Source of the DNA: Mytilinidion resinicola
Lineage: Eukaryota > Ascomycota > Dothideomycetes > Mytilinidiales > Mytilinidiaceae
Assembly (NCBI RefSeq): GCF_010093595.1
Contig: NW_022985476.1
Location: forward strand, 111,076 to 175,075
Direction: 5' to 3'
DNA: 64,000 bases
Shown: positions 4,238-60,345 of the stretch, in pieces
How positions within the stretch are numbered: position 1 is the first letter of the stretch
Layout of the letters: every line of letters begins with the position of its first letter
Notes under the pieces: model-generated
What the model was told of the DNA's origin: nothing
The model's database searches: none
Seen by the model: only the letters and a program-made list of their open reading frames with translations
Position numbers and translations under genes: made by a program

Positions 4238-5347
4238 TTTGTCGAGTTATAGCCGTTGAGGAAAGGGGAGAAGCTACACTGAAAGCTGGGGCGGTCAACA
4301 ACAGACAAACACAGCAAGTGCGGGGTATCAAAGGCTCACGATGGGTTTCAGCAGCAAATTCTACAAGAGCCGGAGTTTCACAGAGGTCAATTGGCGAGAA
4401 AAGTAAGTATAGTAGAGAGTTCTGCGGTGGGGTGGTCGGAGGTGTCGTGATGTTTTGGGGGAGAAAGTGCCTGGAGAGATGGGTGGAAATGACAACTGTT
4501 GGCGGGGCACCTTTTGTTGGCGAAGTGGAGAGTGTGGGGGGATCCGTTCACAACACTGGTCCTTGAGCACCTACAAAGGTAGGACACTCATATATTTCAA
4601 TTGGGCCTGAACATTACGGCAAGAGTCAGGCCGTTCACTGAATGATTGCATTCATAATGGATTATACCGCAGCAAAGCCCACAAGCTAACTTGATGAATA
4701 ACCTCACTAAGCACTCCTCCAACATCACGTAATGCTGTACACCTCCGAGACACCGAGTGTGCGGAAGAGTTATCCAGAGGATCATCTGCGTCTGAAACTC
4801 ACGACAATGCGCTCTATGTGTGCGCACGGCCAGCTCATGCATCAAGAAAGGGAACCTCCGATACCGCTCGCAGGAAGATGTACTGGCTACGACTTGGATC
4901 TCCGTCCGTTCACACTTGCTCGCCACTATATTGGTTGCTTTAGTAGTTGGGCAAGCCGAAGAAAAGCTATGACAGACCAGCTGCCTGGTCAGGCTACCTC
5001 ACGCTATATCATGGACTGAAGCATGCTCTAAGTATTGTGTTGGATTTGATAGTTACAAGAAAGCAGTGTTCAAGATGCTACCGGCGCCAGAATGCCAAAC
5101 CCAATTCTCGCCATGAACAAGAAGATCTGCCCGCCATTGATCCCGCCCAAAAGAGAAAAGAAAAGAACTGTCCGCAGCTTCAAGTCACGCAGCGGTAGGC
5201 ACACGTGGTGCGCAGCGAGTGATGTGAACATCGTCTTCCCGTACACGACTGCCCAGCAGCGAGCGTGGCTGGTGAATAGTAAACTGCCGCTTCTGCGCCT
5301 CGAATGTCGTCGGAATCGTGATGAATTGCTTGTGCACAATGCCGTGT
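4238..5347. other. intergenic: GPI promoter side and 3' region of the YPK kinase gene
   Basis: About 1.1 kb lacking a credible gene. Short frames on both strands (for example 4732-5019 and 5092-5385) have no family features or intron signals. The right part is the 3' UTR and terminator zone of the kinase gene. The left part must contain the GPI promoter. Confidence 0.5.
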
Positions 5348-7539
5348 CTATCTCTCCGAAACGCCTTCGAACGACGGGTCCTTGACACTCCCGCCGGCAT
5401 CTCCGAGACCGGCGACTGGTCGGTTGTATGACCAGCCCGCGAATTGCTGTTGCATTGTCTGAGACAACATGGGTCCATCCACGTACGAGTCAGTGGGCGC
5501 CTCGGATGTGAATTCTCGATCAAAGTTGGCAGTGTCCCGTTGATCAACCTATGCAGATTAGAAGAGTGTTGAGCATAAGATGAACGAGGTTACTTACCAC
5601 ATTGGGCTTGAAGCTGGGCTCGTATTTGCGCTCCAAGAGCTTCCGCCAGTCAATGCTGTGGAAGAAGTAGTGAGACTTGATCTCCGCGGCACCCTTGGCA
5701 CCCAAACGCTTCTCTGCGTTCCTATCAAGAAGTCGAGTGAGGAGATCGCGTGCAGCAGGCGGCACAATTTCGGGTCCAGGGAAATGTAGGGGTTCTGTGA
5801 GAATCTTCCGGTACATGTCGTTGGTGTTTTCGTCGTAGAAGGGCGGCAGACCTGTCAACATCTCATATAAAAGGACACCAAGCGTCCACCAATCGACAGT
5901 CTTGGTGTATCCAGCACCTGTGAGGAGCTCAGGAGCCAGATATTCTGGGGTCCCACAGAAAGCTATCAATTGTTAGAAGGACCTAGAATGATATATGGAT
6001 TATCCTTACTGTTGGTCCTGTCTTCGTCCTTCATGTCAAGCTTGCAAAGACCGAAGTCACAGAGTGCAATATGCCCCGTGTAATCCAGAAGAATGTTTTC
6101 TGGCTTCAAGTCACGGTAAATGACATTGAATCCGTGCAAACACTCCAAAGCGCATAGTAGTTCTGCGGCATAGAATCGAGCTCGGTTGATGTCGAAGCGC
6201 TGCTCTTTCTGAAGATGGTGGAACAGTTCACCGCCATTGACGAAAGCGAGGACGAGATAGAGCTTCTCGGGTGATTGAAAGGAGAACTTTAGTGGTACGA
6301 TAAACGGGTTGTTGATCTGGGCGAGGACTGATCGCTCCGCAAGAGTGTGTGCGACTTCGGAGCGCGAGATGATATGGGCCTTGCGGATGGTCTTCAGCGC
6401 GTAGATACGATGTGTGTCACGCTTCCTACACCCCTGGTTAGACGTCGGTTCCACGACATCTCAAACTTGCACAACTTACTGGACTTGCATGACCTTGCCG
6501 AAACTGCCCTTCCCCACGACTTTGAGCAACTCGAAATCCTCGATCGTCAGTTTGTCTTGACGGTTCTCGACAAAGTTGACGCCGATCCTCATAGAACCTG
6601 TTCCATATCCAAGACTGACCCAATCAGCACCCGCCTGCGCCTTTCCGCGCTCCGACTCGGCATGAGCCGCCGCCGCCTTTTCCTTATCTTTCTTGCTCAG
6701 CTTTTGGTCCTCCACATACGGCTGTTGCTCCTCGAAGCGGGGGTTGACCTTGCAGGTGCCAATGAAAATATCGTCGTTTCTGCCGGCATTGGGAGCTGCG
6801 GAGGGATTGCGAATATAGAGGGAGATGTTCAGTTCAGTTGTCCGCGAGACATCGAATTTGTACTGTGTGTTTCCCCCTGCCCAGAGCGGGTTTTCTGGGG
6901 TACCTTGCACGGCGTTGATGAAGACCTGCTGCTTATCAAAGTCGACGAGAGCATACGGGAGGTATTTGGAAGAGTAGCGGCCGTGAATTGTAGGCACCGC
7001 GTTGATGCTTCCAGCTGCGGACTGCGGTCGATTGCTGGAATAGGAGCCAACCACACCACCCTGGTTTCGTGATGACGAATTGGGTCTCATGGACCCTGCA
7101 ACCGAGAAACCACCTGTGGAGAGCGAGCCTTGGTGGTGGCCGCTCGTGGTAAAGGCAGCCTCGGAACCCGCAGGGAGGGAGAAGCCTTTGCCCTCGTAGA
7201 GCGTTACTATGAGAATACCTGGCTTCAAGGGGGGCGGAGGAGGGGCAGCATTCGCTTCAGACGCAGCTACGAATGTTAGCACTGTCTCTGGAATCAGATT
7301 GTGCCAGACGTACCGATGCCATTGGGGTCCTTCGGATCGACGAGAGTCGCGCTGCTCGCGGTACTCGAAGGCTTTGGTGTGCTGTCGGCGACTATGGTCG
7401 AGGTGGACGAAGAACGGCTGAAGGTGTTCGCTAATGGGGCCAAATGCGTCTCCTTGAGCTCTGGTGGGAATGAGATAGCGTCTTCTAACAGCGTATCGCC
7501 AGGCGGCCTCTACTTACTCTTGGTGAGTTTCCAGGACAT
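5348..7539 (-). CDS. ypk1: YPK1/SGK-type AGC serine/threonine protein kinase (YpkA orthologue)
   Basis: Kinase downstream of TORC2 and PDK1 controlling sphingolipid and plasma-membrane homeostasis and polar growth. Six exons (7539-7518, 7460-7314, 7266-6480, 6425-6010, 5962-5598, 5548-5348) join in frame to 645 aa. The first exon is only 22 nt (MSWKLTK), a start typical of filamentous-fungal YPKs, and this decides the start codon. After a Ser/Thr-rich leader comes a C2-like region (PGILIVTLYEGKGF to IGTCKVNPRF). The kinase domain has VGKGSFGKV, ALKTIRK, YRDLKPENILL, ALCDFGLCK and TFCGTPEY; the activation-loop Thr codon is split by intron 4. The AGC tail has a turn-motif region (SEAPTDSYV) and the hydrophobic motif FAGWSY. 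All catalytic residues are intact. It is divergent from ADA2 across about 560 nt. Confidence 0.97.
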
Positions 7540-11012: not shown

Positions 11013-12107
11013 ATGGCGTCCACAACAGGCCCCAGGCCGAGGTTCGATTCCCCCGGTGCATTTGTCCAGGGGATGATTAACGAGATCGATGAATTGCTAG
11101 AAACGGCAGGGAAGACAGACACCCAACGACTAGTACGAGACCTTCCGCTAGAGCTGGACGCATTCAGGGCGAAATTCGAAGCGGTGAAGAGGAGTGTTCC
11201 TTCGGACTGGGACGCCTTCCTAGAAGATGTGGAGAACACCGACGAAGCGTCTAGAATTCAGGGGGATGTGACGGATTTCCGAGATACAGTAGACGCTTAC
11301 ATGCGGCTGCTAGGCTCAGTGATTACGGCCCAAACACTTAGAACCGCTCCTAGTTCATACCAGATCCGACAAGATAGACTGGCAGCTGAAGCCATGTTAC
11401 CTCGGAACGACTATGGTCTCGCGGGTGCCAGTTCATGGGCAAATGCGGCTCTTAATACGGTCCAAAGCACTGCATTGTCAGTTGCAGCAGGAGATCTTCC
11501 GGTGGACTATGAAACGTGTAACAAAGTATTGTGGACGGCCAAGTATGCTAAAGAGCACGCGGAGAAGATTAAGACGTTTAGCCAAAGGGCAGGGTTCGAC
11601 GAAAAAACGTATACGAATATCGAAGACGAGATAGACAGTGATACAAAGCTTGCCAAGTTAGCGTTGAAAGATGCGATGAATCAACGTTTCATCTGTCTTC
11701 ATAGCACGGTGCAGATTCTGAACGAGACAGTTAAGAACGATTCAGTCAGTCTTAAGAAGGCGTGGATAGAGGATAGAAAGGCACCTTTATTCGTCAACCA
11801 TTGTCTGAATATCGAGTGGAGCATGGGGCCTAGAAGGAACAGACTTGCGCATGCGTATGGTGTGCCAAATATGGTTATTCCGGAAAAGTATCAGGCGTTT
11901 GACCCCAGGGACCACTGGAATCATGTATGGGCCATTTACGAGGATCTTATAAATGCGCTCGATGAGGTCATTGAGACCATAAGACCAATGCACGAGAAGG
12001 CCTTATGGCAAAAGAGGAATGAAGATGGATACTGGGTTGACGGCGAAAATATTGATCCTTGGACTCAGTCTAGAAGTGAAGGCGCTGGATCTCAAAATGC
12101 AAACTAG
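11013..12107 (+). CDS. uncharacterised protein with HepT/HEPN-like C-terminal domain (paralogue 1)
   Basis: Intronless, 364 aa from the ATG at 11013 (MASTTGPRPR); an in-frame ATG at 10851 would add 54 poor-looking residues. The N-terminal half is predicted helical and has no recognised family. The C-terminal part (about residues 195-325) has the HepT-like layout: a helix KDAMNQRFICLHSTVQIL, a helix ending in RNRLAHAY (R275, H280, Y282; the R-x4-H-x-Y pattern of HepT/HEPN RNases), then a closing helix HVWAIYEDLINALDEVI. In known HEPN proteins the Arg and His form the RNA-cleaving site, and in HepT the Tyr is modified by the partner MNT nucleotidyltransferase. No nucleotidyltransferase-like gene is visible nearby. 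The RNase role is inferred from the motif alone. A tandem paralogue follows 501 nt downstream. Confidence 0.7.
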   Translation: MASTTGPRPRFDSPGAFVQGMINEIDELLETAGKTDTQRLVRDLPLELDAFRAKFEAVKRSVPSDWDAFLEDVENTDEASRIQGDVTDFRDTVDAYMRLLGSVITAQTLRTAPSSYQIRQDRLAAEAMLPRNDYGLAGASSWANAALNTVQSTALSVAAGDLPVDYETCNKVLWTAKYAKEHAEKIKTFSQRAGFDEKTYTNIEDEIDSDTKLAKLALKDAMNQRFICLHSTVQILNETVKNDSVSLKKAWIEDRKAPLFVNHCLNIEWSMGPRRNRLAHAYGVPNMVIPEKYQAFDPRDHWNHVWAIYEDLINALDEVIETIRPMHEKALWQKRNEDGYWVDGENIDPWTQSRSEGAGSQNAN

Positions 12108-12608
12108 AATGGAGGTAATGGGGGCAGCTCTCAGATGCAGCTATACATGCTAGTGATAAGTTTGAATAGCTAGTAGTAGAATTTTAATATTTATCCAGTC
12201 AACAGGTTGCGTCCAAAAAGAAATTTGCGTTGATCATGGATCTTAAATTCGGTATGAATGCCTCCAAAATAGTGACCTACTCAAAAGGGTATACTAGCTC
12301 AGTCGTTGGGTCATACTACGGGCTAGGAGTTGATTCGTCGCTCGAGGGGTTCAGCTAAGGCAATGCTTGAGGGATGCTCTTTATTCGCTTGCTCGTCATT
12401 GGTCTTTATTCGGGAATTAGCCTTTGTGCAGCGCTTTGTATTTACATATCACCTAGCCACTCTTTGTGTTATTGTAGACACCAAAAACGTGAGCAAAGTA
12501 CCTGGCAAGCTCTAGAGATTCTTTTCATTGATATTACGAAGATAACTCAGTACCAAATATATATATCACCTCCTTGGCGAAGCCCGAGCATAGATTGATT
12601 TGAGAGAG
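12108..12608. other. intergenic between the two HEPN-like paralogues
   Basis: 501 nt, fairly AT-rich. It must contain the terminator of paralogue 1 and the promoter of paralogue 2. Frames at 12330-12598 are shadows without features. Confidence 0.45.
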
Positions 12609-13967
12609 ATGGCAGATCCGGAGAAGATTTCAGATCAGGTACAGGCGACAAATTGGGACTGGGATCCGGATCAAATAGTGAACTCGGATCACATACAAAC
12701 GATGAAATGGGAAGATCTGACAGTGAACACAGATCAAATTCGAACGACGAATTCGGACGAGGACCAGACGGGAGCTTCGGACAATTACGTTGACGAAATG
12801 GAACCATCCATGGAGGACGAACACATTGACCTGAATATTTCGCCGCCTTATTACGAGGACGAGGATGATGATCCGGAACCTGTCATGTCAGATGAGGACT
12901 TTGCCAGTGTACGGACATCATATCTCGAGATCCGGAACTCACTTCTCCTTGGCCACCTCGACGCTTTCAAGCTTGGTCTCCATATTTTCGATCAAATAAT
13001 CCAATTTCGAGAAAGATTCAAAGCTATACCGCCGGAAGGTGAGTTTCCCAGCAACGCGGCTGACCTGAGCTTATCCGATATGGTATCTGTACAAAAGAAG
13101 GTTAGAGACCTCCATATCGACTTTATAGGGGCCCCCAAGGGCGGTACCGGGTTTCTGAGTAAGCTTGGTTCTGTAGTAGATGTTATGGGGGTTCCAGGAG
13201 GTCCAGGCAGCTACTACACGCCCAACGGAAACCCCGTGACAGTTCCAGGAGGTGAATCAGTTCCAGGAGGTAAACCAATTCCACCCATGGAGAAGGTCGA
13301 GAAGGCAATTGCAGTCGTTCAGTACGCTCAGCAACATATCCATTGGATAAATTCGTATAATGACTTAGGGAACTTTAATCGGGGTGAATTTACCAGGATT
13401 GACCATTTTGTTGTAGGTGATTCCGATATCCAGCAGCTTATGGCTAAAGATGCTATGATTCAACGGTTTGTCTGCTTGAATAGCGCGATGGAAATTATAC
13501 GCCATGTGATTCGTGATACTTCCCTGAACGACGAATTCACTGAGGAGAAAACGCCCTTATATATGGAGGTTGAGGATCTAGGCTATGTGTCGGCTCGTCT
13601 TAGGAACACAGTGGCGCATGGATATGGGGTGCCGGATGGATTTGTAAGCTTTATCAACAAAAATTACTCAAGCTTCAACTCTGGGGAGTGCTTTGACTGG
13701 ATTTTGGATAATCGCAAACTTTTTGAGAAGGCTTTAACGGAGGCAATGGATAAGCTGGAGGAGCTGAAAAGAAAGGGGATCAAAATCGAGGCAGAAGAAA
13801 AGGCCAAAGCTGCCGCTCAAGAAGCGGCCGCTGTAGCTGAAGGAGAAGCTGCCGCTGCTGCTTTTAATGCAGATCTTGAATTAGGAAGCATTCAGGCTCC
13901 GTCAGGGACAAATCCAACAGCTGGGACTTTGAATCCCAACGCAGAAAGTTCCGATACTCCTGCCTAG
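12609..13967 (+). CDS. uncharacterised protein with HepT/HEPN-like C-terminal domain (paralogue 2)
   Basis: Intronless, 452 aa from ATG 12609 (MADPEKISDQ); the frame is open slightly further upstream but has no other ATG. The N-terminus is acidic and made of degenerate short repeats (DPDQIVNSDH, TVNTDQIRTTNSD). A middle segment has a Gly/Pro repeat (VPGGESVPGGKPIPP). The C-terminal domain parallels paralogue 1: AKDAMIQRFVCLNSAMEII aligns with LKDAMNQRFICLHSTVQIL, followed by LRNTVAHGYGVPD (R332, H337, Y339: R-x4-H-x-Y). An Ala/Glu-rich coiled tail ends the protein. The two genes clearly share ancestry over the C-terminal half, while their N-termini have diverged. A function as an HEPN ribonuclease is a hypothesis from the motif. 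Confidence 0.7.
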   Translation: MADPEKISDQVQATNWDWDPDQIVNSDHIQTMKWEDLTVNTDQIRTTNSDEDQTGASDNYVDEMEPSMEDEHIDLNISPPYYEDEDDDPEPVMSDEDFASVRTSYLEIRNSLLLGHLDAFKLGLHIFDQIIQFRERFKAIPPEGEFPSNAADLSLSDMVSVQKKVRDLHIDFIGAPKGGTGFLSKLGSVVDVMGVPGGPGSYYTPNGNPVTVPGGESVPGGKPIPPMEKVEKAIAVVQYAQQHIHWINSYNDLGNFNRGEFTRIDHFVVGDSDIQQLMAKDAMIQRFVCLNSAMEIIRHVIRDTSLNDEFTEEKTPLYMEVEDLGYVSARLRNTVAHGYGVPDGFVSFINKNYSSFNSGECFDWILDNRKLFEKALTEAMDKLEELKRKGIKIEAEEKAKAAAQEAAAVAEGEAAAAAFNADLELGSIQAPSGTNPTAGTLNPNAESSDTPA

Positions 13968-20668: not shown

Positions 20669-20954
20669 TTTGACGTCTACCAGCTTGTGAGGAGGAATGG
20701 GAGAGAGGCCGGCGAGCGGCAAACGCCCTTTTTATATAATTGCGGACACTTTGTGTGGGGCCTGGTTTTGTTTGCGCACCGCAAGTTTGGTGTTGAGCTT
20801 CCCTGCGAAACACCGCGCCAAGACATTTCCACTTCTAATGTTTCTGTTTACCGCTCTTCAACACCACGACAATGAATCCCCTACGACACCACCTCACTTC
20901 CGCATTGATACACTGAGTCTTCGCCTCATACATGGACTCAGGAACACCCAGAAC
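20669..20954. promoter_or_regulatory. short bidirectional promoter
   Basis: 286 nt between the divergent start codons of the HD-domain and augmin genes. It contains both promoters and 5' UTRs. The augmin frame is open through much of it, so a longer augmin N-terminus cannot be excluded. Confidence 0.55.
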
Positions 20955-23267
20955 ATGTCTCGCTCAACCTCCGCGTCGAGCGCAGCCCCTTCCACAACCC
21001 TGAATGTCTCCCGCACCATGTCCGTCAAAGCATCATCTGGACCCGCCAAATCCTCAAACACTGCGCTATTCCTCACCAACCTCCGTTTGCTTGACCTAGA
21101 TCTCCGTGACGACTGGCCAGCAATCACCGCGCAAACATTCACCACCCAGAACGCCCAACAGAACCAGAAGAATCGGATTAGATGTGTAGAATGGGCCTTA
21201 TTTCGCCTGTTCGAGTTGTGGGATGCCGAAGAGACGCGGGAGGTAAGAATAGTCTGTACCTTGTAGCACTACATGCTAATAATCATATAGAAACTTCATC
21301 CCTTCTTCCCACCTCTCGAACCTCTTCAATCCCTAAACCTACGCGCCGCCATGTACCGCTCCCTCAACGAGTTGAAGAAGAATGGAGTACTCGGTCGGAC
21401 GTCAGTTCTCCGGAAGACTATGCTAGACGAATGCAAGGACGAGAAGCTCATGGAATTGTTATTGGTGTTTTCGACTGCGGTCCTGAAGAAAAGGATAGCT
21501 TCGACAAGGAAACGTGGCCCCAAGAAGGACACAGTTGCGAAGACTCTGGCTACGGCACCTTTGCTTAATGTCAGTGAACAGAGCTCCTTGCTGCCGTTAG
21601 CAATTGCGCATAAAGCTAGTCTACAGGCGGCACTGGCGAAGAAAGAAGTCCAGAGGAAACGATACGTGGAGTTCTCCGAGTTACTAGACACCAAGGCCGA
21701 TGATATCAACCAGCGTATTGAGAACTGTCGGGAAGAAAAACACTCGGGTCGTAACTTTTCCAAGAACGTCGATACAGCGTCTGTCAAAAGGCAACTCCGC
21801 GAGAACTGGTCTGGGGATGCTAAATGGATAGACGCTATGCTTTATGGGGATGACGAGAAGTCAGACGACGTCTTTCTCCAAAAGCCATTCAAAGATATCT
21901 GGCCCAGAGTCGAAAAAGGTGGCACACTGCAAGGTCAGGGTATGCATGAAGGGTTACTGGAGAGCCTAGAAGCTCGCGTGAAGCAGCAACAGAGCCGGAT
22001 TAGTCGATGGCAGGAGTTTCACGATCAAATCAAATCACACCCGTCATCTGCCAAGGATACGAAGTCGCCTCCTCGCAAAGAGAACGCGGCTCCGATTTGT
22101 GCATTTGATGCCCATGTGGAGTTACAAATAGGCAAATTCAGGGACGAGGTTGCTGCGAATAGCACGCGGGCATCCCAAACATACCAGGATATTATTTCTG
22201 AGATGAATGACGAGCTTTCGAAAGAGTCCAAATTACGCCGAGATCGCGCAGCAATATCACATTCACGTCGCGGCTCTCGGTCTAGATCACCTATCAAAAG
22301 GACAAAATCCCGATCCAATTCTATACCAAAGAAGCCTCTGGAAGTAGCCATTGAAGTCAAGCCAGCTGCGAAGCCAGCTCCGAAACCACCACCGAAGAAA
22401 CAGCCATTCGACAAAGTTCCAGTCCTAGCTCGCAAATACGAACCTTCAAGCACACCTATTGGCTCCGACGCCACTCTCATCGGCAGCGCAATTGAAACAC
22501 TCCCATCTCTTCCAGCCCTCCAGCCGCAGCCAATCCTCCCACCGCGAAATAACGAAAGTGAAGAAGTACCCCGAAAGTTCACTCGGCCCACCTCTCCCCC
22601 GCCTCCTCCTCGCTCGCCAACCCCACCTCCTCCAGAACTCCCAATTAGCAAAGAGGACCTCCTTGCTGAGCAAATCATCTCTTCAATCGGCGACGCTACC
22701 CCTTCACCTGTTAAAAAGCCGCGGCCATCCCTCACGGAACGAGCCCGGATGTCCATGGCACACGCCAGCGCTTTCCAACTTCCCGAGACGATCGAAGAGA
22801 GTCCGCCATCACTACCACCATTGCCCACAATCCCCCAAGAGACCATCCTGAACCGACGGGCAACCTTGGCCGAACGCACACGACAATCCATGGCCCGCGT
22901 CTCGTTAGCCCCGCAGCACAAATCTCGGAAGTCCATGTCGACAAAACGGCAATCGGTCTTCCCAGTCAATCAGTTCGAGACACCGCGGAAATCGATGGCG
23001 ATTGAGGAAGAGCCGAGAGGAGATTCCACGCCGAAAGAGTATCTGTTCAGCGAGAAGGCGGAGTACGAGAATGTGTTTAAGAGTCGGCCGAAGATCGCGG
23101 TAAGCCCCATCCTCTCACCAGAGAACGCGGGTGAGGATGGAGATGAAGAGGACGAGCTGCCGATGGACAGCATCCTCGAAATGGACATGGATGACTCAGG
23201 CCCGGTGGACAATTGGGAAAGTAGCCCGTTGCGGAGGCCGGCGATCATGGAACGGGGTAGAGTATAA
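20955..23267 (+). CDS. HAUS augmin-like complex subunit 6 homologue (AugF-like)
   Basis: Exons 20955-21242 and 21291-23267 give 754 aa; the 48-nt intron has donor GTAAGA and branch GCTAAT. The N-terminal part (NTALFLTNLRLLDLDLRDDWPAITAQTF...LFRLFELWD...KLHPFFPPLEPLQSLNLRAAMYRSLNELKKNGVL) matches the HAUS6 N-terminal family, which in filamentous fungi and animals belongs to augmin and recruits gamma-tubulin for branching microtubule nucleation on spindles. The middle is long and helical/coiled (residues about 180-430). It is followed by an Arg/Ser-rich stretch (RRGSRSRSPIKRTKSRS), Pro-rich segments (PTSPPPPPRSPTPPPP), and two RxTLAERTRQSMA/ERARMSMAHA-like short repeats near residues 560-610. 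The acidic C-terminus is probably disordered. The family call rests on the N-terminus. Confidence 0.82.
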
Positions 23268-24910: not shown

Positions 24911-27135
24911 ATGAACATTCGCTGCAAAGCCCAATTGCGCGGCTTGGGGACTAGGAAGCTGACGGTAACAGCCTCTCGCTTCGACTCATTTCTAGAATAT
25001 ACCAGCTAATCAATTGAGGATTGTAGACACATTGTAGGACCCCCACACCTACGAGACAGTATCCAAATACATATAGTCGAAGTCTACACTTCTCTTCGAG
25101 TGATGGTGCATCGGTCCCTGCCAGAGACGAAAATGATTCTCTCCTCACACCTCCTACGAAAGTCCTGAAGCCGGCGTTCCAAAGGCGTGCAGACCGCGAT
25201 TGGATGGTCACGCATCTGGAGGAATCGCCGGCGAGGAGGGATAGCCGAAATTATTTGAAGCATTTCAAGCAGAAGAAGGCGGTGTCGAGGACGAGCGACA
25301 GCTTACAAAACACCGCTGGCAACGTGAATCAGGATTCATGGCGGCTGCATAAGACGGGCGTCAATTTGGGGAACCTCTATGCGCCTGCTAAAGCCATTGA
25401 GGAGAGCCCGACCTTTACCAGGGAGGCGCCATCGGAACGAATATCGCAGACTGTGGAGCCGCTGCATATTGCGCTGGTCAAGCTGAGATGGCCGCAGGGG
25501 CTGGATAAAGAGACGCTGGGTGGGATTGCGCTGACGTTGAGCCAATTGGTGAGGTTGGGGCTGAATATTGCGCTCGTGCTTGATTGTGATGGAGAGGAGG
25601 TGGCAGAGGGGCTGGAGTGGGACAAGAGCTGGGCGACGACCGTAACTGAGCAGGCCAACAGGGTGTTGGATGCGTTGCTTGAATTCAATGAGCCGGGCGC
25701 CATGGTTGTTGATCATGCCCTGGGTGTGGAGGATGTCAAGAATGAGGTGCCTACGACGGTGCATGTAAGAGGTGGGATTGAGGTCAAGCATAATAGGCTG
25801 TTGTTGCCATTATTAGAGGATGGGATCATTCCTGTTATCCCGCCGATTGCGTATACCACCGAAAACTTCCGAAAGCAGAGAATTGAGCCAGATGATGTGG
25901 TTCTGGCGTTGACAAGGGAGTTTGCAGGTATCACGGCGAGGAACATGAAAACTTCTGAAATTCATACGATGCCTCTTCATTTGAAGGCTCTTAATGTTCA
26001 AGACCAGCCCCTTCTCGATAGGATCCTCATCTTGGACCCTGTAGGAGGTATTCCATCCAAGGACCGACCGGACAACGCACATGTCTTCATCAATTTGGAA
26101 CAAGAATATCGAGGCGTCAGGAACGAGCTTACGGGAGTACATACTTCACCAAAAAAGACAGGGCCTGCATCGTTGTTCGGAGGAAGCAATCCATTCTCTA
26201 AATTCGTGGAAAGCAACATCAACTTTGCGCAGACTACCCCAAATCGACATACGAAAAACCTCGATGTCGTCCAAAGAGCCCTGAAGCTACTCCCACCCTC
26301 TTCGTCTGCCCTGATAATCACACCACATGCTGCCGCCGTCTCGTCCCGTCCACAGCCAGATGACGAAACTGCCCCTACCGGAGTCCGCACCCGTCGGCCA
26401 AAGAACCCTCTCATTCACAACCTTCTCACCGACAAACCCATGGTCTCTTCTTCTCTCCCTGACGAAACAGTTCCCCACCATCGACCCAGAATAATAACTG
26501 CAAATCCACCAACATTTGTTAAGAAAGGCATTCCCGTGACCATAATCCCTGCAGCTCCTTGGGCACCACGGTCCCCTTCGAACCCATGTATAACCCTCGA
26601 AAACGATCCTCGAATCGACTTTCCGCGTCTTATTGACCTCATCGACGACTCATTCCAGCGAAAACTCGACGTCCATGCCTACCTCGAGCGCATCCGAGGT
26701 CGCGTCGCTGGTGTCATAATAGCAGGCGACTACGAAGGCGGCGCAATCTGCACATGGGAAGATCCACCCTCCTCGTCACCAAATCAACCACCCATCCCCT
26801 ATCTCGACAAATTCGCCGTTCGGACGAAATCACAGGGTTCCGGGGGTGTGGCGGATATCGTCTGGCGCTGCCTTACTCGTCAATGTTTCCCAGACGGCGT
26901 TCTTTGGCGGAGTCGGTCAAATAACCCTGTCAATAAGTGGTATTTCGAGAGGAGTGTGGGCACGTGGAAACTGCCTGGCGGGAATTGGACTATGTTTTGG
27001 ACGACGGAGGGAGTAGTAGAGGAGTGGGCTAAGGAGCAAGAGAGCGGTGAGGCGGGTGGAGGGAAGTGGGATGCGTATGTTAAAGTTTGCGAGGGAGTTG
27101 TGCCTACGTGGGCAGATGGGAAGAGGCCGGATTAG
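24911..27135 (+). CDS. arg2: mitochondrial amino-acid acetyltransferase (N-acetylglutamate synthase)
   Basis: Mitochondrial enzyme making N-acetylglutamate, the first committed step of arginine synthesis. The main exon is 25027-27135. Its first ATG (25204) lies inside a conserved-looking stretch (DRDWMVTHLEESPARRDSRNYLKHF), and the frame is open upstream to 25027 without another ATG. A short first exon 24911-24964 (MNIRCKAQLRGLGTRKLT) joins in phase through a 62-nt intron and supplies an Arg/Lys-rich mitochondrial presequence, giving 720 aa. The body has a degenerate amino-acid-kinase fold (LVKLRWPQGLDKETLGGIAL, LVLDCD), HVFINLEQEYRGVR, and the C-terminal NAGS-type acetyltransferase domain (GGAICTWE, LDKFAV, GVADIVWRCL, RSRSNNPVNKWYFERSVGTW). 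The exon-1 proposal is inference. The product is well supported. Confidence 0.95.
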
Positions 27136-30438: not shown

Positions 30439-33400
30439 ATGGCCGGAGAACATAATGGACTACTATCGCAGGCGGAAGGACACAAAGATGAGGTGATCGA
30501 GACCTTGGAGAAGAGTATACTTGCTCTTTTCCTGGATGACAGCCTTGTCGTCGATCCTTTGCCTGCCGTCAATGACACAGAATTGACAGAGTTGGATCGT
30601 ACGCTTAGTGTCTCGACCTACTTTACTGCCAGAAGTGTGCGAAGCAAGACTAGCATTGATACGTTTCGAACAACCGTATCAGGATCTCGAGGGCTGAATG
30701 GGAACTCTACAGCTTCGACGTATGTTCATTGCGTGTCCAATATCATCTCGTAGATCAACACTGATAGCCCCCCTAGGACCTCGTGGTACAAGTTCTTGGA
30801 CTCTGAAGAACTGATTCCTGAGCCCTTGCTGGAAAAAGACTGGTCTGGTAGAGGCGAGCACGCTGAATTCGACCCAGATGAGAAACACCACATTGATGCA
30901 ATTCTTAGTGTTGAGAACGTTCTCGGCACATCCGCTACTGCCCTGGTTGAGAGCGTGCGCTGTCGCCGAATTTTGCTAGCACGCAAGACTATCTTCAATC
31001 GCTGCATGAAGCGCACTGAAGCTATTAAAGAAGTCAAGCACTTGAAACGCCTCGAACACTCACACATCCTACGCGTGGTCGGAACGTACATGTTTAAGCA
31101 AAATTTAAGCATACTGTTGTATCCAGCGGCCAATGACAACTTCGAGGGCTTCATGGAGTCAATAATTGCCGAGTTTCCTGGCAAAGAAAGCGTTCCAGAT
31201 CATGACGGGACAGCTCCAAAGCTTCGTGCTCTGACTAAATTCTTCGGTTGTCTTGCACATACAGTAAATTTTCTTCACCAGAACGCCACAAAGCACATGG
31301 ACATAAAGCCCAAGAACCTATTAGTCAAAACGGTACGGGATAGTCGCTCTCCTCCCAGCGAAGTATCGTACAAAGTCTATATCGCTGATTTCGGAATCAC
31401 TCGGGCTTACAAAAACGCCTCGGAAGCCGAGACTGACTCGCGGACCTCATTCACCAGGATGTGTGCTGCGCCTGAAGTTGATCTTAAGAGAGGACTGAAT
31501 GCTGACATCTTCTCTTTGGGATGTGTATTTGTGGAGATGCTGGCAGTGTTGGTTAGCTCCGGACGAGAATCTAAGAAAGAGGACATCATGGCCATTTTAC
31601 AGTCTGATGAAGATCAACCTTGGAATCCTATCAAGCTAACATCGCAGGTGTCGTTCTCTGGCTCCAGGAGGTTATTGATCTCAATACAGCAAACCCCTAT
31701 TTCCTGGAGCTTTACCCCTTTCCAAAGAAGATCATTGAAATCATCGACTTCGATCCCCATCGGCGACCTACTGCTGCAACGGTCGCTTCTTATTTCAACA
31801 CCGCGTCTTCTTGCTGTGTAGCTGGCGCTGGTCCGGTCCCTTTTCAAGTGGATGATGGGCTCTCCAACGACGAACAAGCCCCACAAATCACTATAACAGA
31901 GTCTAAAGATGGACCCCCCTCTGGACCCGATTTCTCGCTCTTCGAAGCCTGCCGAAAATTCCAACTACGCTTCAGTGCTGAAGAACTATTCCACCAATGG
32001 ATGATACACGATGCAACCAAGCTTCTCCATGACTCTGGCAGTGTGAATACGATTGAATTGTTATGGCAATTTCTGAGACGTGGTGTCTCCTTACTACTTC
32101 TCTTCAACATTCCCATTCCACAACCACTCCCTGTCGAAAGCCCTCTCCGATCTCGAGCTGCCACTTCCCACTTTTTGAGTATCTGCGTTCGTTATCTCAA
32201 CATTCCGGCGGCTGATTGTTTCACAATGCAAGATCTATACGATTCGAACATAATGGGCTTCGTGAGGGTAAGTAGTTGTAGATAATTCTGATCTTCCGAT
32301 ATCTACCTCTGCCACCTTGCATTAAGTGGTTTGCTAACTTTGTGAATAGGTCATCAAATTTCTCAATCGTGTCCTTTCCATACTGTACCAAAACGATCAT
32401 GGGAGACCCTCTATTCTGAAAACTCCCCGGGAATTTACTCCAATCGTTACCACAGATGTGCAAAGTCCCCTCAGAACCACGTTAACCAATTTCTTGAAAT
32501 CCGAACGTTCGTACGTCTACGGTCTGGAGAAGCTGCTCGAGATTCAGCGTAATGCAGAATTACTACACTTGATAACGGAAAGCTTCTCTCGGTCACATCT
32601 TATAGAGCTAGATAGGATTTTGGATTTCCAGCAACGTTTTTTGATCCAAGTAAAAGAGCTCTATCATTTCGGGGCGGATGTCAAATCATGGTTTGAGCTT
32701 TTTGTCCGTAACTGGGCGAAGTTCCAAGTTGTTGTTCCGTATATTCGGAGTCTGCCCTCCACGCTTGAACAAACGGTGCAATTTGCCGACAAACTCAACT
32801 TAGTTTTGAGCATTTTTGGGCAACAACAAAGCAACTCTTTTGGGGAATTTTCTAGCCTAAAAGCTCTCATGTTGGCTCCCGCACTTCGTTTGCTCGAGTA
32901 CGAAAAAATTTCCAAGGTAAGACCGTCCTTTCCAATGTGGTAGCGTCTTCTAACTTCACTCAGGATCTTTCTGGAAGGCCAGTTGTATACCGAAAATGGA
33001 CGGATGCGCTTGCGAATATACTACTTCCTTTAGAGAACCCCCTATTCTTGGAGGCTGATGTAGGGTTCATTGATCTGACCTCCATGCCACCATTTCATCG
33101 CCAAGGGCTTACTAGACTGAGTTTGACACCCATGCACTCCCGAAGCGTTTCCGCCATCAAGTCGCAACCGGTGGTATGTCGTCTGCCCAGCAAAAGATGA
33201 AACCACGTGGACCAAAAGTCACTAATATATTTCCGCTAAGTAGTATACCATGTTTCTCAGCAGACATTTGCTCCTGTTTACCGAAAGGCAGCAAAAGCTG
33301 GTTGCAGTTAGCCAGAAACCTCGGCAGGTCTTTCGTATTCAAATGAAGATGCTTTGCGAGCATATTTCAGTCACTAAGCACCCTGACTATGAAATCGCAA

Positions 33401-40435: not shown

Positions 40436-40907
40436 TTTACTACGATTAAGACCACTCGGTGGCGGGGATTTTGACAGAATTGCAAAGAGAAGGAAGGTGG
40501 AAGCCGGACATAGCGTGACGGGAGTTTGAAGTGCAAGACTGGCCGCCGTGTTTGTGCGGCTCAGGCGGCGTAGGAGGTGAACGAAGGCTTGGTCCGGTGA
40601 AGGCTGGAGCCCCGTGTCATAAGTCACATAAGCGAGCCAAGCTGGAAGTTACCTTTATAGTCTAACTCTACTCTATATATATGTACAATGGCACCACGTG
40701 CCGGCGGGTAGAAGCGGTTTAGCGGAGAATTCAAAAGGAACGTCAATAGAAATCATCTCGCGTCACCACCACTTTTACGTTTCTTTCACGCCACCAGGAC
40801 TCTCCCATATCAATCCAATTCTCTGCCCTCGACTCTATACACCCCAAAAACCTCAATCCCACCACCTGAAATCTCAAACTGCACCCTCACCCTCCAATCC
40901 TGCAACC
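40436..40907. promoter_or_regulatory. bidirectional promoter, APH-like and CBS genes
   Basis: 472 nt between divergent starts. A TATATATATG stretch near 40673-40682 and a CCACGTGCC E-box-like site near 40692 are present. Cbf1/MetR-type bHLH/bZIP control of sulfur genes uses CACGTG in yeasts, so the site is suggestive only. A C/T-rich leader with CACCACTTTT precedes the CBS start. Confidence 0.5.
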
Positions 40908-42564
40908 ATGGCCTCCAAAACCCGCCCCGCCATCCCACCCGTCGTAATGGACACAATCACCCAAAACATCGGCAACACGCCCCTCGTCCGCCTAAACAAA
41001 ATCCCCCAATCCCTCGGCATTCCCTGCACCGTCTACGCAAAACTCGAAATGTTCAACGCCGGCGGCAGCGTCAAAGACCGCATCGCCCTGCGCATGATCG
41101 AGGAAGCCGAGAAGAGCGGCCGCATAAAACCGGGCGACACCCTCATCGAGCCCACCTCGGGAAACACGGGCATCGGGCTTGCACTGGTAGCGGCCGTCAA
41201 GGGGTATAAGACGATTATTACCCTGCCGGAAAAGATGAGCCCGGAGAAAGTGGCGGTGCTGCGGGCGTTGGGCGCGGAGATCATCAGGACGCCGACGCAG
41301 GCTGCGTGGGATAGTCCCGAGAGTCATATTGGAGTTGCAAGGCGGTTGGAGAAGGAGATTCCGAATGCGCATATTTTGGATCAATACGCCAACCCTGATA
41401 ACCCGCTTGCGCATGAGTATGGCACTGCGGAGGAGATTTGGACGCAGACGGAGGGGAAGATTACGGTGTTGGTGGCAGGCGCGGGGACAGGCGGGACTAT
41501 TACGGGCATCTCGAAAGGTTTGAGGAAGCATAACAAGGCTGTTAAGATTGTTGCGGCGGATCCGTATGGCAGTGTGCTGGCGGTGCCTGAAGCGCTGAAT
41601 CAGGAGCATGCGAATGAGGCATATAAGGTTGAGGGCATTGGGTATGATTTCATTCCAGACGTGCTAGATCGGGAAGCCGTGGATGTGTGGTACAAGACGG
41701 ATGATCGGGCGGCGTTTGGATATGCGAGGAGGTTGATTGCTGAAGAGGGTATTCTGTGCGGAGGGAGCAGTGGGAGTGCAATGGATGCTATGGTGAAGGC
41801 TGTAAAAGACCTCAAGTTGGGAGCGGACGACTTCGTGGTGGTAGTGCTGCCAGATAGCATACGGAGCTATCTGAGCAAGGTATGTTTCCCTCTCTGCTCA
41901 ATTCAACGCTTCAAAATCCCTCAGAGTATACGAAATGATCGATGATATTAATCTGACGCAGTTCGTCGACGATGACTGGCTCGCTGCAAACGACCTCCTT
42001 CCTCCCTCCCTCCCAATCACTCCAGCAACCCTCTCCCGTCGTGCATCTACTTCGAAGAAAGATGACTCTTTCCAGGGCGCAACTATCGCCTCGCTCCGCC
42101 TCAAGCCCGTCACCACCATCTCCGCCGCCTCTCCGTGTGCCGACGCCATAGAGACCATGCGCGAGAAAGGCTTCGATCAGCTGCCCGTCTCTTCAGCACA
42201 TGGCTCCCGTCTCGTCGGCCTCGTCACGCTCGGAAACCTGCTCTCCTACATCAGCTCTGGCCGCGCGGGTCCTAATAGCCCGGTGAAGGACGTCATGTTT
42301 GACTTCAGCAAACTGAGTGAGGTTGTCACTGATGTGCGGGATTTGCATCTTAGTGACCACAAGGAGGAGAAAGATGGGAAGAAACACCGGGAATTCCTAG
42401 AGATCACGCGAGATACCCCTCTAAGCGCGCTCAGTCGATTCTTTGAGTGGAATTCAGCGGCCGTGGTAACGGAGAAGGGGGAGAGCGGCATGAAGGCTGT
42501 AGCGGTCGTGACGAAGGTGGATCTGCTGGGATGGCTGGTTAAGCACCGGAAAGGGGTAGCGTAG
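40908..42564 (+). CDS. cys4: cystathionine beta-synthase
   Basis: PLP enzyme condensing homocysteine with serine to cystathionine in cytosolic transsulfuration. Exons 40908-41879 and 41962-42564 give 524 aa; the start [11 protein letters not shown] was chosen because the open frame upstream has no other credible start. The catalytic domain has [31 protein letters not shown] (PLP Lys at K56), [13 protein letters not shown], the Gly-rich phosphate loop [13 protein letters not shown], and SSGSAMDAM. The C-terminal Bateman module (CBS pair) runs from [23 protein letters not shown] to [14 protein letters not shown]. The N-terminal haem-binding segment of animal CBS is absent, as in yeast Cys4. Possession of CBS domains separates it from cysteine synthase. 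No damage. Confidence 0.96.
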
Positions 42565-44981: not shown

Positions 44982-45899
44982 ATGGCCATATTCTCGGACG
45001 CCAGAGCCGAAGACACTAGACCTATTAAGAGTACGACTGGGGCCGATATTAGTCTTGCCGCGAGAACCAACGCTCTTACCTCCCCAACTTCAGGACTTGC
45101 ACCAACCTTCTTGCAAGCCAACCTGGTCATTCTTCCATCTCGATACGCTTCCGACTTTCGCCTCCTCTGTGCCAGAAACCCAGTACCATGTCCACTGATT
45201 GCCGAGTCAATATCGATCGGCTGCTGGAGCTCTGTGACGTCCTTCATTCCAGGTCTAGAGGGTGCAGCTATCTTGTCCGACTGCGATATCCGCCGCGACG
45301 TATCCAAATACATAGTGTACAAGAACTCGAAAATCATGAAGCAAGGATGCCTAGACATCTTGGACGAATGGACTGACGATTATGTTGCTCTCCTCATCGG
45401 ATGCTCGTTCAGTTTTGAGTCTGCCCTGATCGTGGCTGGTCTTCCTCCCCGACATACAGCTTTGAATCGAAATGTGCCCATATACCGGACGAACATTCCG
45501 CTTTGTCCCGCTGGCGTCTTTACGGGAAGTACATACGTCGTGTCTATGAGATCTTACAAGGCTTCGGAGGTGGAGAAGGTGCGAGAGATAACGAGGCCCT
45601 ACACAGCGACGCATGGAGAACCTATCGCATGGGGCTGGGGTGCGGTCAAGCGATTGGGTATTGAGGATATCGACGCACCGACTTGGGGCGAGCCGCCGTT
45701 AACGCAAGATGGGAGGCCGCTGGGTGAGGTGGAGGGGAAGGATCACGATGTTCCCGTTTTCTGGGGGTGCGGCGTCACTCCGATGGAAGCAGTGGCGAGG
45801 TCTGGATTGGAGGGAGTCGTCATGACACACGATCCTGGTCATATGCTTCTCTTGGACTGTCGCGATTCTGATATAGTGCCGGCTGCTTGTGTTGCATAG
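44982..45899 (+). CDS. DUF1445 / YcsI-family protein (putative hydro-lyase or D-glutamate cyclase-like)
   Basis: Intronless, 305 aa. Strong family features: TSGLAPTFLQANLVILPSRYASDFRLLC, NPVPCPLIAE, DIRRDVSKYIVYKN, VALLIGCSFSFESALIVAGLPPRH, NVPIYRTNIPLCPAGVFTGSTYVVSMRS, HGEPIAWG, VPVFWGCGVTPMEAVA and MTHDPGHMLLLD. The family is mostly bacterial with members across Pezizomycotina. Related mitochondrial proteins in animals are D-glutamate cyclases, which makes a 5-oxoprolinase-like reaction possible but not shown. Lack of introns and bacterial-rich family membership are compatible with old horizontal transfer. TATA-like and C/T-rich leader upstream. Start is the only good ATG. Confidence 0.92.
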   Translation: MAIFSDARAEDTRPIKSTTGADISLAARTNALTSPTSGLAPTFLQANLVILPSRYASDFRLLCARNPVPCPLIAESISIGCWSSVTSFIPGLEGAAILSDCDIRRDVSKYIVYKNSKIMKQGCLDILDEWTDDYVALLIGCSFSFESALIVAGLPPRHTALNRNVPIYRTNIPLCPAGVFTGSTYVVSMRSYKASEVEKVREITRPYTATHGEPIAWGWGAVKRLGIEDIDAPTWGEPPLTQDGRPLGEVEGKDHDVPVFWGCGVTPMEAVARSGLEGVVMTHDPGHMLLLDCRDSDIVPAACVA

Positions 45900-47845: not shown

Positions 47846-48185
47846 AATAAAATCTCCCTAAGTTGCCATAGTGTGTATTGTTACGTGCGTCTTCCGAGTT
47901 GCGCCTGACACTGAGGCCGGCTCGCCCTTGGCTCGACTCAGAGCCTATTGGCCCGAATCAGACCAGCCCAGACCCCGCTAGCCCTCTAGCGTTGGGGCTT
48001 GTGCGCCCGGGGCAGCCATAGGATAAACAGCTGGTTCCCCCCTCTTTTATAAAAGGGTAAGCGGTTCGTTCTTAACTTAGCCTTAGTATATATAGCTTTT
48101 ACCTATTACCTGCCCTTTTTAACTTAATAAATAAACTCCTACCCTAAAAATACTTAAAAGCTATATATACTATAGTATAATAATT
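47846..48185. other. spacer at the edge of the AT-rich block
   Basis: GC-rich at first (GGCTCGCCCTTGGCTCGACT near 47920), turning abruptly AT-rich after about 48060. No gene. The TAAACTCCTACC/TATATA sequence leads into the outer LTR. Confidence 0.4.
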
Positions 48186-48487
48186 TATTTTATCTAATAT
48201 ATATTTAAGTTATAGTAAGGTATTATTATATAAATATATAAACTATAAGAATTTATTTAAAGTATAATATTAATAGTAAAATTAAAAGGTATAAGTAAAG
48301 ATAAAGTTACTTTCTAATAATATAAGTACTAAAAAATCTTAAAATAAATATAAACTATTTAAGGAGGTAAAAACTGTATTTTAAATATAAAACTAGCTTC
48401 TAAGAAATTTGTTAAATTACCTTAGATTACTATAATTTATTATAATTTACCCTTATAAATCGCGTTAGATTATTTTAATTTATTATA
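48186..48487 (-). repeat. outer element LTR (3' LTR in element orientation)
   Basis: 302 nt, matching 63638-63939 with mostly C/T and G/A differences; this copy is the more AT-rich. Confidence 0.8.
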
Positions 48488-49307
48488 TAGCCTTTATCCT
48501 ATAATATTCTTTTTATTAGGCTATATTATTTCTAGAAATTTCTAGTATTTAGATTTACCTAAAATACTTATTTTAGAGGTTTAGTAGTATTTCTTTTTAG
48601 ATTATACCTATAATACTATTTCCCCTATTTAAGCCTATTATTTTAATAGCTACGCCTAAGTAAAATTCCCTTAAATAAATAGCTAGTAATACTCTACTTA
48701 TAGGTTATATATTATTACTATATTATTTTTTTTTTATTATACTAACTAAGGTTAAATAATATTTAATTTTTAGCTTTTATATTACGTTATTAGGAATTTT
48801 TATACCTTTTTATTTCTTTTATTATAAATATAGTTTAAACTATAAGGTGCTTTTAGTAGCTGCGGGCTAATACGAAAAATATATTTATTATAGTCGCGCT
48901 TATTACAATATTAGTAGTATATTTATAGCTAACTATAGGTAATTAAAACTTTATTCCTTTTTTACTATTAATTTTTCTAGTTACTTATATTAATACTGCG
49001 CGTGCAAAGCTTTATATAAATAAGTAGGCTACTTATAAGGCCTATTAGGCGGCTGCCCTTATCTTTATAATATTTAATACTAAACTTAAGCGTTTTAAAA
49101 AGTAGGAGAAGCTTTTAAAATATTATAAAAGTAATATACTTTATTTTAGTTTCTAAACTTTAAAAAAGCTTAAATAAGAAAATTATAAAAAGGTTACCTA
49201 AAAAAAATAAAAACGTGTTAAATAGAAAGTTGCTTTACTATTAAACTTTATGTTTTCTTCTACCTTTATAGTTTTAGGTAATTTTTTTAATTCTTTATAG
49301 TTAATAG

Positions 49308-49312
49308 GAGCG
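49308..49312 (+). repeat. target-site duplication GAGCG (left)
   Basis: GAGCG directly precedes the inner 5' LTR and recurs directly after its 3' LTR at 56483-56487, proving insertion into the outer element. Confidence 0.9.
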
Positions 49313-49511
49313 TGTAATAGCTATATCCTGCGCCCCGCATAGGGCATGCAGGTCGCGCGCCATCACGTGCGCAAAGGTCACGTGACCCTTATAGTCCGTG
49401 CACGCAAGCCGAACTATAACTATAGAGCTGGCGCTGCCGTAGCTCCTTATAGATTCTTCCTAGTTACAATCAACAACCTGTTTCCTACAACACCCTCTTA
49501 GTTCCGTGACA
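49313..49511 (+). repeat. 5' LTR of the inner element
   Basis: 199 nt, TGTAATAGCTATATCC to CCGTGACA. Two CACGTG palindromes at 49364-49369 and 49379-49384 could serve as bHLH-type promoter sites. The same places in the 3' LTR read TACGTG and TATATA. Confidence 0.93.
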
Positions 49512-49549
49512 CTAAGAATCTATCTTCCTTGCTCCAGGAAAGACAGGAG

Positions 49550-49550
<1 letters not shown>

Positions 49551-49603
<53 letters not shown>
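49551..49603 (+). repeat. (ACT)n microsatellite in the element leader
   Basis: About 17 uninterrupted ACT units between the 5' LTR and the gag start. Uninterrupted length suggests recent expansion. It also creates spurious Tyr- or Thr-repeat frames. Confidence 0.95.
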
Positions 49604-49736
49604 CCCTTCGACGCACGACGTCGCCGTCAGCCTGATTCGGAGTGCTTGTACCACTGCCGACAGCCCGACAACTTTTTTCTTTCACTACCTCAACTCCGCC
49701 TAGGTAAAGGCGCTCTTCTCTCTTCTCTATTAAGCC

Positions 49737-50210
49737 ATGGTCACCACTCCAGGTTCCCCACGAGGAGGAGCGAAGAAGATTAAGAAGAAACCAACTATTC
49801 CCCCCGCCGCCGCAGGTGCGTCGTTAACGACGCGCCACGCCCCCCGCCCCAATACAGCTCCAATTCCAGCAGCGGCTTCGCAGGCAGAAACACAAGAGAC
49901 TCTAGGCACTGATTCCCAGATGCGCCAGCGCGGTACTCACGTTGGTTCCAAGCCCGAAGAGTCCGCCGCAATCCTGCAAGCCCGCGCAACACAATGGAAG
50001 GGAGGCAAACTCATTCACCCGGACGATTCAGATGTTGACGACGAAGACGACGATGAGGGCGGCGCCCCTACCGGAACTCAGTCAACCGCCCTGGTACATG
50101 ACGACGGCAAGACAACCGCAGCACTCTCCGCTGCTGAGGACAACGACGTCCTTGCTACTCTTGACGGAGAGATAGCCGCCTATAGTTCGCGACTCTTTAA
50201 GGCCCGTTAA
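49737..50210 (+). pseudogene. gag N-terminal remnant of the inner element
   Basis: 157 codons open from ATG 49737: a basic Pro/Ala-rich start, then an acidic patch (DDSDVDDEDDDEGG), ending at a TAA. Gag-like sequence continues in the same general direction with scattered TAG/TAA (helical coiled coil to about 50780), so the frame is truncated by mutation, not a small gene. The GC-rich state contrasts with the downstream pol region. Confidence 0.8.
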
Positions 50211-50951
50211 GGCCGGCGTTCTACTCTTCTTGTCAAAGAGAACAACAACCTCGTCCTAGGCGTTGGAGCCGACGAGGGCGAGGATAACTGGGTCCGGCAT
50301 AAGATTACAACGACAACTTAACTCCAGGAGTCAGTCCAGGCCTAAGGCGATAAGTGGTTTAACCAGATTCACCACCTGTCTAGCATGCAAGGCATCTATA
50401 ATAAGTATAAGAACACAGCACGCATGCAGGCCGCCGGACTACGTAATAGAGCAGACCATCTTTAGCGAGACTTAGACGCCTCTTCCACAAAGCTATCTAA
50501 GACTAAACGCGAGCTCGAATACTCGCGCCAGGCCAACGTTGATTACCGCGCAGACCTAGCGGACATCAACGTATAGCTGGTCAAGCGCATTAACCGTTGC
50601 AACGAACTCTCTGCTTAACTCTAGGCCTCTGTTATTGCACACCAACGCTCACGTAATAAGGCGATGGACTTCCGCGATGAAGCGGAGCATGTTAACGCCG
50701 AGAACATCGCCCTCTAAGCCGAGAAGGCAGGGCTGGAGGAGAAAATCCGTCGCCTAGAGCAGTCTTAACCCCAGCAACACGCTTAATTTGTCACCCCCAC
50801 CCCTGGCTATGGTTCCGACGACGAAGACTATACTGCCTTCCTTAACAACCTCCGCCAGGCCCGGGGAGCCCCTACATCCACGGCTGCTTCCGCAAAAGCC
50901 CTAGTATATAGAACACCTCCCAATATAAATTGCTCGCGTATAGCTTATAGT

Positions 50952-56482: not shown

Positions 56483-56487
56483 GAGCG
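56483..56487 (+). repeat. target-site duplication GAGCG (right)
   Basis: Matches 49308-49312. Confidence 0.9.
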
Positions 56488-60332: not shown

Positions 60333-60345
60333 TATTATTAATATA
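60333..60345 (+). repeat. 13-bp target-site duplication, left copy
   Basis: TATTATTAATATA, repeated exactly at 61787-61799. The sequence is AT-only in an AT-rich context, so chance is possible. Confidence 0.55.

What the first reader, a model, noticed from the sequence alone, without database searches (positions are those of the whole stretch)
11013..13967. Tandem fungal genes with a HepT-like R-x4-H-x-Y (HEPN RNase) signature
Seen: two adjacent intronless paralogues, aligned over their C-terminal halves (KDAM-x-QRF-x-CL), each with R-N-x3-H-x-Y (RNRLAHAY, RNTVAHGY) between two helices. Known: in bacterial HepT toxins and the wider HEPN superfamily this motif is the RNA-cleaving site, and the Tyr is the target of MNT nucleotidyltransferase. 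Inference: these could be eukaryotic HEPN ribonucleases in RNA-based defence, self/non-self recognition or intragenomic conflict. They form a private island between core genes ada2 and the gene at 14809, with divergent N-termini (a recognition part?). No partner nucleotidyltransferase is seen within the window. I cannot test novelty.
Basis: partly seen in the sequence, partly recalled or inferred. Interest (0 to 1): 0.82.

Follow-up and report, generated by a model that had tools for sequence, protein, structure and literature searches.

The report
Fungal relatives of bacterial RNase toxins
Two neighbouring genes in a fungus seem to encode RNA-cutting proteins distantly related to a bacterial toxin family, which would add an unusual type of RNase to the eukaryotic repertoire, but the activity is untested and a role in defence is a guess.

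The parts
11013..12107 (+). gene 1, 364 aa, intronless; orthologue in Lophium mytilinum (P0002)
   Evidence: open frame; P0002 69% identical over 96%, E 1.5e-156
11013..11480 (+). gene 1 N-terminal helical region (residues 1-156), function unknown
   Evidence: helices in a low-confidence model; identity to Lophium 79% (1-61), 72% (62-108), 60% (109-156)
11481..12047 (+). gene 1 predicted HEPN-M-like domain (residues 157-345; limits are mine)
11670..11690 (+). gene 1 DAMNQRF, signature that aligns with D-A-x-I-Q-R-F of PF08780 proteins
11835..11858 (+). gene 1 RNRLAHAY, predicted RNase site Rx4H plus Tyr
12108..12608 (.). 501-base stretch between the two genes, GC 0.415
12609..13967 (+). gene 2, 452 aa, intronless paralogue; no protein scored E <= 1 in the collection searched
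   Evidence: open frame
12609..12893 (+). gene 2 acidic N-terminal extension (residues 1-95; 29 D/E, 3 K/R), mostly absent from gene 1
13239..13802 (+). gene 2 predicted HEPN-M-like domain (residues 211-398; limits are mine), four helices
   Evidence: AlphaFold pLDDT 70.4, pTM 0.69; Foldseek 7ae6 prob 0.84 but E 0.62, rank 5; VIA-align 10 of 50 listed entries HEPN
13449..13469 (+). gene 2 DAMIQRF signature
13602..13625 (+). gene 2 RNTVAHGY, predicted RNase site

Best explanation
The two genes encode HEPN-superfamily proteins whose C-terminal domain lies near the HEPN-M group (PF08780 NTase_sub_bind / PF01934 HepT). Most likely mechanism, inferred: the domain dimerises so that two Rx4H sites line one cleft, where His (with Arg and the following Asn) promotes metal-independent RNA cleavage; the products may pair with themselves or with each other. 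Control by MNT AMPylation has been lost or never existed here; the conserved N-terminal helical region and, in gene 2, the acidic extension are the likeliest places for regulation or partner binding. Shown here: open genes, paralogy, an orthologue, conserved R/N/H, HEPN-M-like profile match, four-helix model. Inferred: dimer, RNase activity, regulation, biological role.
For: Three-protein profile against 25 PF08780 domains (chosen by the Pfam model, not by the motif): hhalign prob 68%, P 4.7e-5, score 34.6, one alignment over 85 columns holding DAM-x-QRF and RN-x3-H-x-Y in register; reversed 11.7, best of 200 column shuffles 24.5. Against 78 HepT: 29.3, P 3.7e-4, best of 300 shuffles 24.4, reversed 15.5. 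Combined HepT+PF08780 set: 33.0, best of 200 shuffles 23.3. Other four-helix sets: Hpt 12.5, Ferritin 14.4; other HEPN sets: PF05168 11.8, DUF4145 10.4, which HepT itself does not match either (12.6, 12.1). Reverse search of 3178 bacterial frames (91 HEPN-M): top 4 all HEPN-M, 13 of top 20 (two of them the same frame in overlapping loci; 0.6 expected), reversed profile 1 of 20. The best hit, E 0.0012, is a PF08780 protein of Desulforamulus putei next to a nucleotidyltransferase gene and was not in my PF08780 set. Fold: 3 of 50 VIA rows for gene 1 (ranks 1, 5, 9) and 10 of 50 for the gene 2 domain are HEPN. R, N, H kept in 3 of 3 although the paralogues are 25% identical. Y104 substitution did not affect HepT toxicity (PMC7641770, passage), so Phe is compatible with an active enzyme.
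Against: Pfam lists neither PF08780 nor PF01934 at E <= 10 (HMMER's filters drop most matches above about 0.1), and neither rings in the genome. With my first set of only 5 PF08780 domains the score was just 20.2 over 23 columns. The 78 HepT were picked by a DNA pattern of their own motif, which inflates that score. Masking R, H, Y lowers HepT to 15.1 (background), PF08780 to 21.3 and the combined set to 16.7; in the reverse search it leaves 9 of 20, and masking both motifs 4 of 20. Gene 1 plus Lophium, and gene 2 alone, give only P 0.012-0.017 against each set and 0.006-0.007 against the combined set, and in the reverse search put a non-HEPN frame on top, 6 of 20 HEPN-M each. Plain HMM searches give E 0.04-4.4, some noise frames ranking above one of the three. 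HEPN structure rows are tied with designed and unrelated bundles; no HEPN entry is in the 50 Foldseek rows shown for gene 1; models are low to middling in confidence.
Confidence: 0.6

Rival explanations
1. HEPN fold, but no longer a nuclease: an RNA-binding or scaffolding domain, as proposed for some eukaryotic HEPN proteins.
For: The 2013 survey proposes inactive eukaryotic HEPN domains: Swt1, with the motif lost, and several nematode versions that might not be active (PMC3710099, section 9). Both fungal proteins are acidic overall (pI 5.0 and 4.4).
Against: R, N and H are retained in 3 of 3 proteins at 25% overall paralogue identity.
Confidence: 0.22
2. Not HEPN: an unrelated helical bundle in which the short motif arose by chance or for other reasons.
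For: Signal is motif-heavy, direct HMM scores are weak, structural matches are tied with unrelated bundles.
Against: Two separate motifs match PF08780 in order and in one alignment; the reverse search puts HEPN-M first; shuffles, reversals and two other helical families do not reproduce it.
Confidence: 0.15
3. Role (if HEPN): an RNase pair acting in defence, self/non-self recognition or intragenomic conflict.
For: HEPN domains are often used this way (PMC3710099); tandem paralogues; one orthologue found; the best bacterial hit is part of a PF08780/nucleotidyltransferase gene pair.
Against: Only two copies listed in the genome; the N-terminal part is not fast-changing between the two orthologues; no partner recognised beside them (only ten window frames were scanned with Pfam).
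Confidence: 0.17
4. Role (if HEPN): a domesticated housekeeping or stress RNase in RNA processing or decay, working like Las1 or Ire1 without being their relative within the superfamily.
For: Two copies only, no expansion; N-terminal region conserved with Lophium.
Against: Very narrow distribution in the collection searched, though that search reaches only relatives sharing exact words.
Confidence: 0.3

Closest known systems
PF08780 NTase_sub_bind (HEPN-M), e.g. Desulforamulus putei L096:2807-3199
   Same: D-A-x-x-Q-R-F and, further on, RN-x3-H-x-Y, in one alignment
   Different: the bacterial protein is 130 aa, stand-alone and encoded next to a nucleotidyltransferase gene; the fungal proteins have long N-terminal regions, extra residues between motif and last helix, and no such neighbour found
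PF01934 HepT of HepT/MntA toxin-antitoxin modules
   Same: Rx4HxY, a W shortly before it in gene 1, four-helix bundle; HepT-type crystal structures among the structural matches
   Different: no Pfam match, Tyr is Phe in Lophium, no MntA gene found beside it
Eukaryotic HEPN proteins: Las1, Ire1/RNase L KEN domain, Swt1, C6orf70
   Same: superfamily level only (Rx4-6H nuclease site; PMC3710099)
   Different: Pfam lists no family of these for the fungal proteins, nor a kinase or PIN domain; no membrane-like stretch

Membership tests
HEPN superfamily | Rx4-6H motif with a polar residue (N, D or H) after Arg | tested here: met
   RNRLAH, RNRIAH, RNTVAH in 3 of 3 proteins; rule from PMC3710099 (passage)
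HEPN superfamily | four-helix bundle fold | tested here: inconclusive
HEPN superfamily | metal-independent RNase activity | not testable with these tools
   needs biochemistry
HEPN-M (PF08780/PF01934) | match to the curated Pfam model over its cut-off | tested here: not met
   not listed at E <= 10 for gene 1, gene 2 or P0002; no match in the genome
HEPN-M (PF08780/PF01934) | profile-profile similarity above shuffled and unrelated controls | tested here: met
   34.6 (25 PF08780) and 29.3 (78 HepT) against best shuffles 24.5 and 24.4; other helical and HEPN sets 10.4-14.4; but 20.2 with 5 PF08780, and single-gene profiles weak
HepT/MntA toxin-antitoxin module | Tyr of Rx4HxY as AMPylation site | tested here: not met
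   Tyr in gene 1 and gene 2, Phe in the Lophium orthologue
HepT/MntA toxin-antitoxin module | adjacent MNT nucleotidyltransferase gene | tested here: not met
   the 5 PF01909 matches and one sub-threshold PF18765 match lie on other contigs; exon-wise six-frame search, so a gene broken by introns could be missed
Lineage-expanded eukaryotic defence HEPN family | multiple diverged copies in one genome | tested here: not met
   two copies listed (best candidates only are scored)

The most novel reading that the evidence does not exclude
A fungal lineage has kept a HEPN-M toxin-type RNase, a group listed in the 2013 superfamily survey for bacteria and archaea only, and turned it into a tandem two-protein RNase system freed from its nucleotidyltransferase antitoxin, with control moved into the N-terminal region or into pairing between the two paralogues, and used it in RNA-level defence or self/non-self recognition.
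Probability: 0.15. Interest if true: 0.8.

Novelty: new variant of a known kind. Interest (0 to 1): 0.5.

Why it matters
If right, a branch of HEPN that the 2013 survey lists for bacteria and archaea (PMC3710099, Table 1, passage) also exists in a fungus, without its MNT regulator and with the AMPylation Tyr replaced in an orthologue. That makes it testable how a toxin-type RNase is held in check in a eukaryotic cell. My searches of a held open-access library showed no paper on such fungal proteins in the listings (one search listed 20 of 3,270 papers and 8 of 967); subscription journals are largely not held.

Tried and rejected
Curated libraries: Pfam, NCBIfam, PHROGs, PADLOC gave only weak unrelated rows (best E 0.038) or nothing (P0002 was scanned with Pfam only). 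PDB by sequence: nothing for gene 1 alone; one unrelated row at E 0.28 for the profile. Protein collection: gene 1 finds itself and P0002; gene 2 nothing at E <= 1; the three-sequence alignment nothing more. In some searches only the roughly 8000 candidates sharing most words were scored, so narrow distribution is provisional. Prokaryote and virus contigs with the fungal alignment: no relative by tblastn among 212 and 110 pattern matches. Viral structure library: no match at E <= 0.001. Two HepT patterns in viral contigs: none.

Considered and rejected: a full HepT/MntA pair (no MNT neighbour found, Tyr not conserved); recent transfer from bacteria (no close prokaryotic relative found); gene 2 as antitoxin of gene 1 (both carry the intact site). 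A Mann-Whitney comparison was discarded because the reversed profile also gave a tiny P value. A first domain extraction took wrong strands for some loci and was redone with the stated strands. Of 27 PF08780 loci named, 2 were skipped because their flanks are cut at contig ends, leaving 25; weaker or partial PF08780 matches were not used.

Full report
What is there. Two open frames on the + strand, 11013-12107 (364 aa) and 12609-13967 (452 aa), lie 501 bases apart. Gene 1 has an orthologue in Lophium mytilinum, 69% identical over 96%, that begins at the same Met and runs colinear, so the frame is real and intronless. Gene 2 had no relative at E <= 1 in the protein collection, but its C-terminal half is a paralogue of gene 1, 25% identity over 199 aa, E 3e-19. 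RN-x3-H-x-Y occurs twice in 23,237 residues of window frames of 100 aa or more, once in each gene at the aligned place. Six-frame searches of the 47 Mb assembly list only these two copies. The pair has lower third-position GC (0.51, 0.47) than the ada2 frame (0.70) and the gene at 14809 (0.69). Upstream is ada2 (TADA2A-like, SWIRM, Myb); the gene at 14809 has no Pfam match at E <= 0.001.

Is it HEPN? No curated model recognises gene 1 or gene 2, nor, in Pfam, the Lophium orthologue. I therefore built comparison sets: 78 HepT proteins from loci found by a DNA pattern of their motif, 25 PF08780 domains found by the Pfam model, and PF05168, DUF4145, Hpt and Ferritin sets. The three-protein fungal profile scored 29.3 (P 3.7e-4, prob 36%) against HepT, 34.6 (P 4.7e-5, prob 68%) against PF08780 and 33.0 (P 4.4e-5, prob 69%) against both together. 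Reversed: 15.5, 11.7 and 12.0. Best shuffles: 24.4 of 300, 24.5 of 200, 23.3 of 200. Hpt 12.5, Ferritin 14.4, PF05168 11.8, DUF4145 10.4; HepT itself scores only 12.6 and 12.1 against the last two, so those families would not be expected to show. HepT against a set of 5 PF08780 domains scored 47.2, in line with their known kinship. The PF08780 alignment runs over 85 columns and holds both KDAMNQRF and RN-x3-H-x-Y in register.

Weak points of the sequence evidence. With only 5 PF08780 domains the score was 20.2 over 23 columns. The HepT set was chosen by its motif, which favours a motif match. Masking Arg, His and Tyr brings HepT to background (15.1), PF08780 to 21.3 and the combined set to 16.7. 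Gene 1 with Lophium, and gene 2 alone, reach only P 0.012-0.017 against each set and 0.006-0.007 against the combined set. Plain HMM searches of 141 sequences (140 window frames plus Lophium) rank the three fungal proteins first to third with the PF08780 model, but at E 0.17-0.24; with the HepT model they rank 1, 2 and 5, with the combined model 1, 2 and 4.

Reverse test. The fungal profile was run against 3178 frames of 120 aa or more from the fetched bacterial and archaeal loci, 91 of them HEPN-M by my own HMMs. The top four hits were HEPN-M, and 13 of the top 20 (two are the same frame in overlapping loci); 0.6 are expected. Reversed profile: 1 of 20. R/H/Y masked: 9. Both motifs masked: 4. 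Gene 1 with Lophium: 6, gene 2 alone: 6, each with a non-HEPN frame on top. The best hit of the full profile, E 0.0012, is a Desulforamulus putei protein that was not in my PF08780 set; Pfam calls it PF08780 (6.3e-34), and the gene before it is a Polbeta-type nucleotidyltransferase (4.7e-13). The frame set is enriched in HEPN-M by design and includes nonsense frames, so ranks matter more than E-values.

Mechanism. In HEPN RNases the His and, where tested, the Arg of Rx4-6H and the polar residue after Arg matter for cleavage, which appears metal-independent (PMC3710099, passages). All three are kept in all three fungal proteins. In HepT the Tyr receives AMP from MntA, and its replacement did not affect toxicity (PMC7641770, passages). 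The Lophium orthologue has Phe there, so activity could persist while MntA-type control could not. I infer a dimeric endoRNase regulated otherwise. Candidates are the N-terminal region, 79% identical between orthologues in residues 1-61, and the acidic N-terminal extension of gene 2 (29 D/E, 3 K/R).

Role. Nothing here shows defence or conflict: two copies only, an N-terminus that is not fast-changing between two orthologues, no partner recognised. Narrow distribution rests on word-based protein searches and cannot be taken as absence elsewhere.

Known and new. The 2013 survey gives HEPN-M (PF08780/PF01934) the distribution Bacteria, Archaea (Table 1 passage), and describes eukaryotic HEPN families Las1, KEN, C6orf70, Swt1 and some acquisitions in animals, amoebae and nematodes (section 9, read). 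Searches of the held library showed no paper on fungal HepT- or HEPN-M-like proteins in their listings; I also saw the HEPN passages of PMC4102429, which lists the Pfam HEPN domain among domains of some fungal proteomes without detail, and of PMC8195603. I rate it a new variant of a known kind, subject to confirmation of the fold.

Noticed in passing
L096:2397-5894: Desulforamulus putei carries a PF08780 gene after a Polbeta-type nucleotidyltransferase gene and, within 3.5 kb, a HepT gene (PF01934) after a frame (4981-5553) that looks like a second nucleotidyltransferase; frames between them look like IS200/IS605-type transposase genes. The second nucleotidyltransferase and the transposases are my reading, not searched.
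   Followed up: partly
window 48001-64000: The last 16 kb of the window, also the end of contig C40, is AT-rich (GC 0.24-0.43 per 2 kb), as in repeat-induced-point-mutation territory (not tested there); no telomere-like array in the last 600 bases.
   Followed up: no
window 13240-13283: An 18-base tandem repeat (2.4 copies) encodes a V-P-G-G linker just before the first helix of the gene 2 domain.
   Followed up: no
window 12609-12893: The gene 2 N-terminal extension is strongly acidic with loosely repeated D-Q-I segments; it could act as a nucleic-acid mimic or autoinhibitor (guess).
   Followed up: no
window 20697-23267, 25204-27135, 30796-31821, 40698-41945, 44982-45899: Other genes by Pfam: HAUS6 N-terminus over two frames, N-acetylglutamate synthase NAT domain, protein kinase, PALP enzyme, D-glutamate cyclase.
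   Followed up: no
G000:C3:1423589-1423867: A PF01909 nucleotidyltransferase match (E 7.4e-7) in a 244-aa open frame on another contig; whether it is MNT-like is unknown because its sequence could not be fetched.
   Followed up: partly
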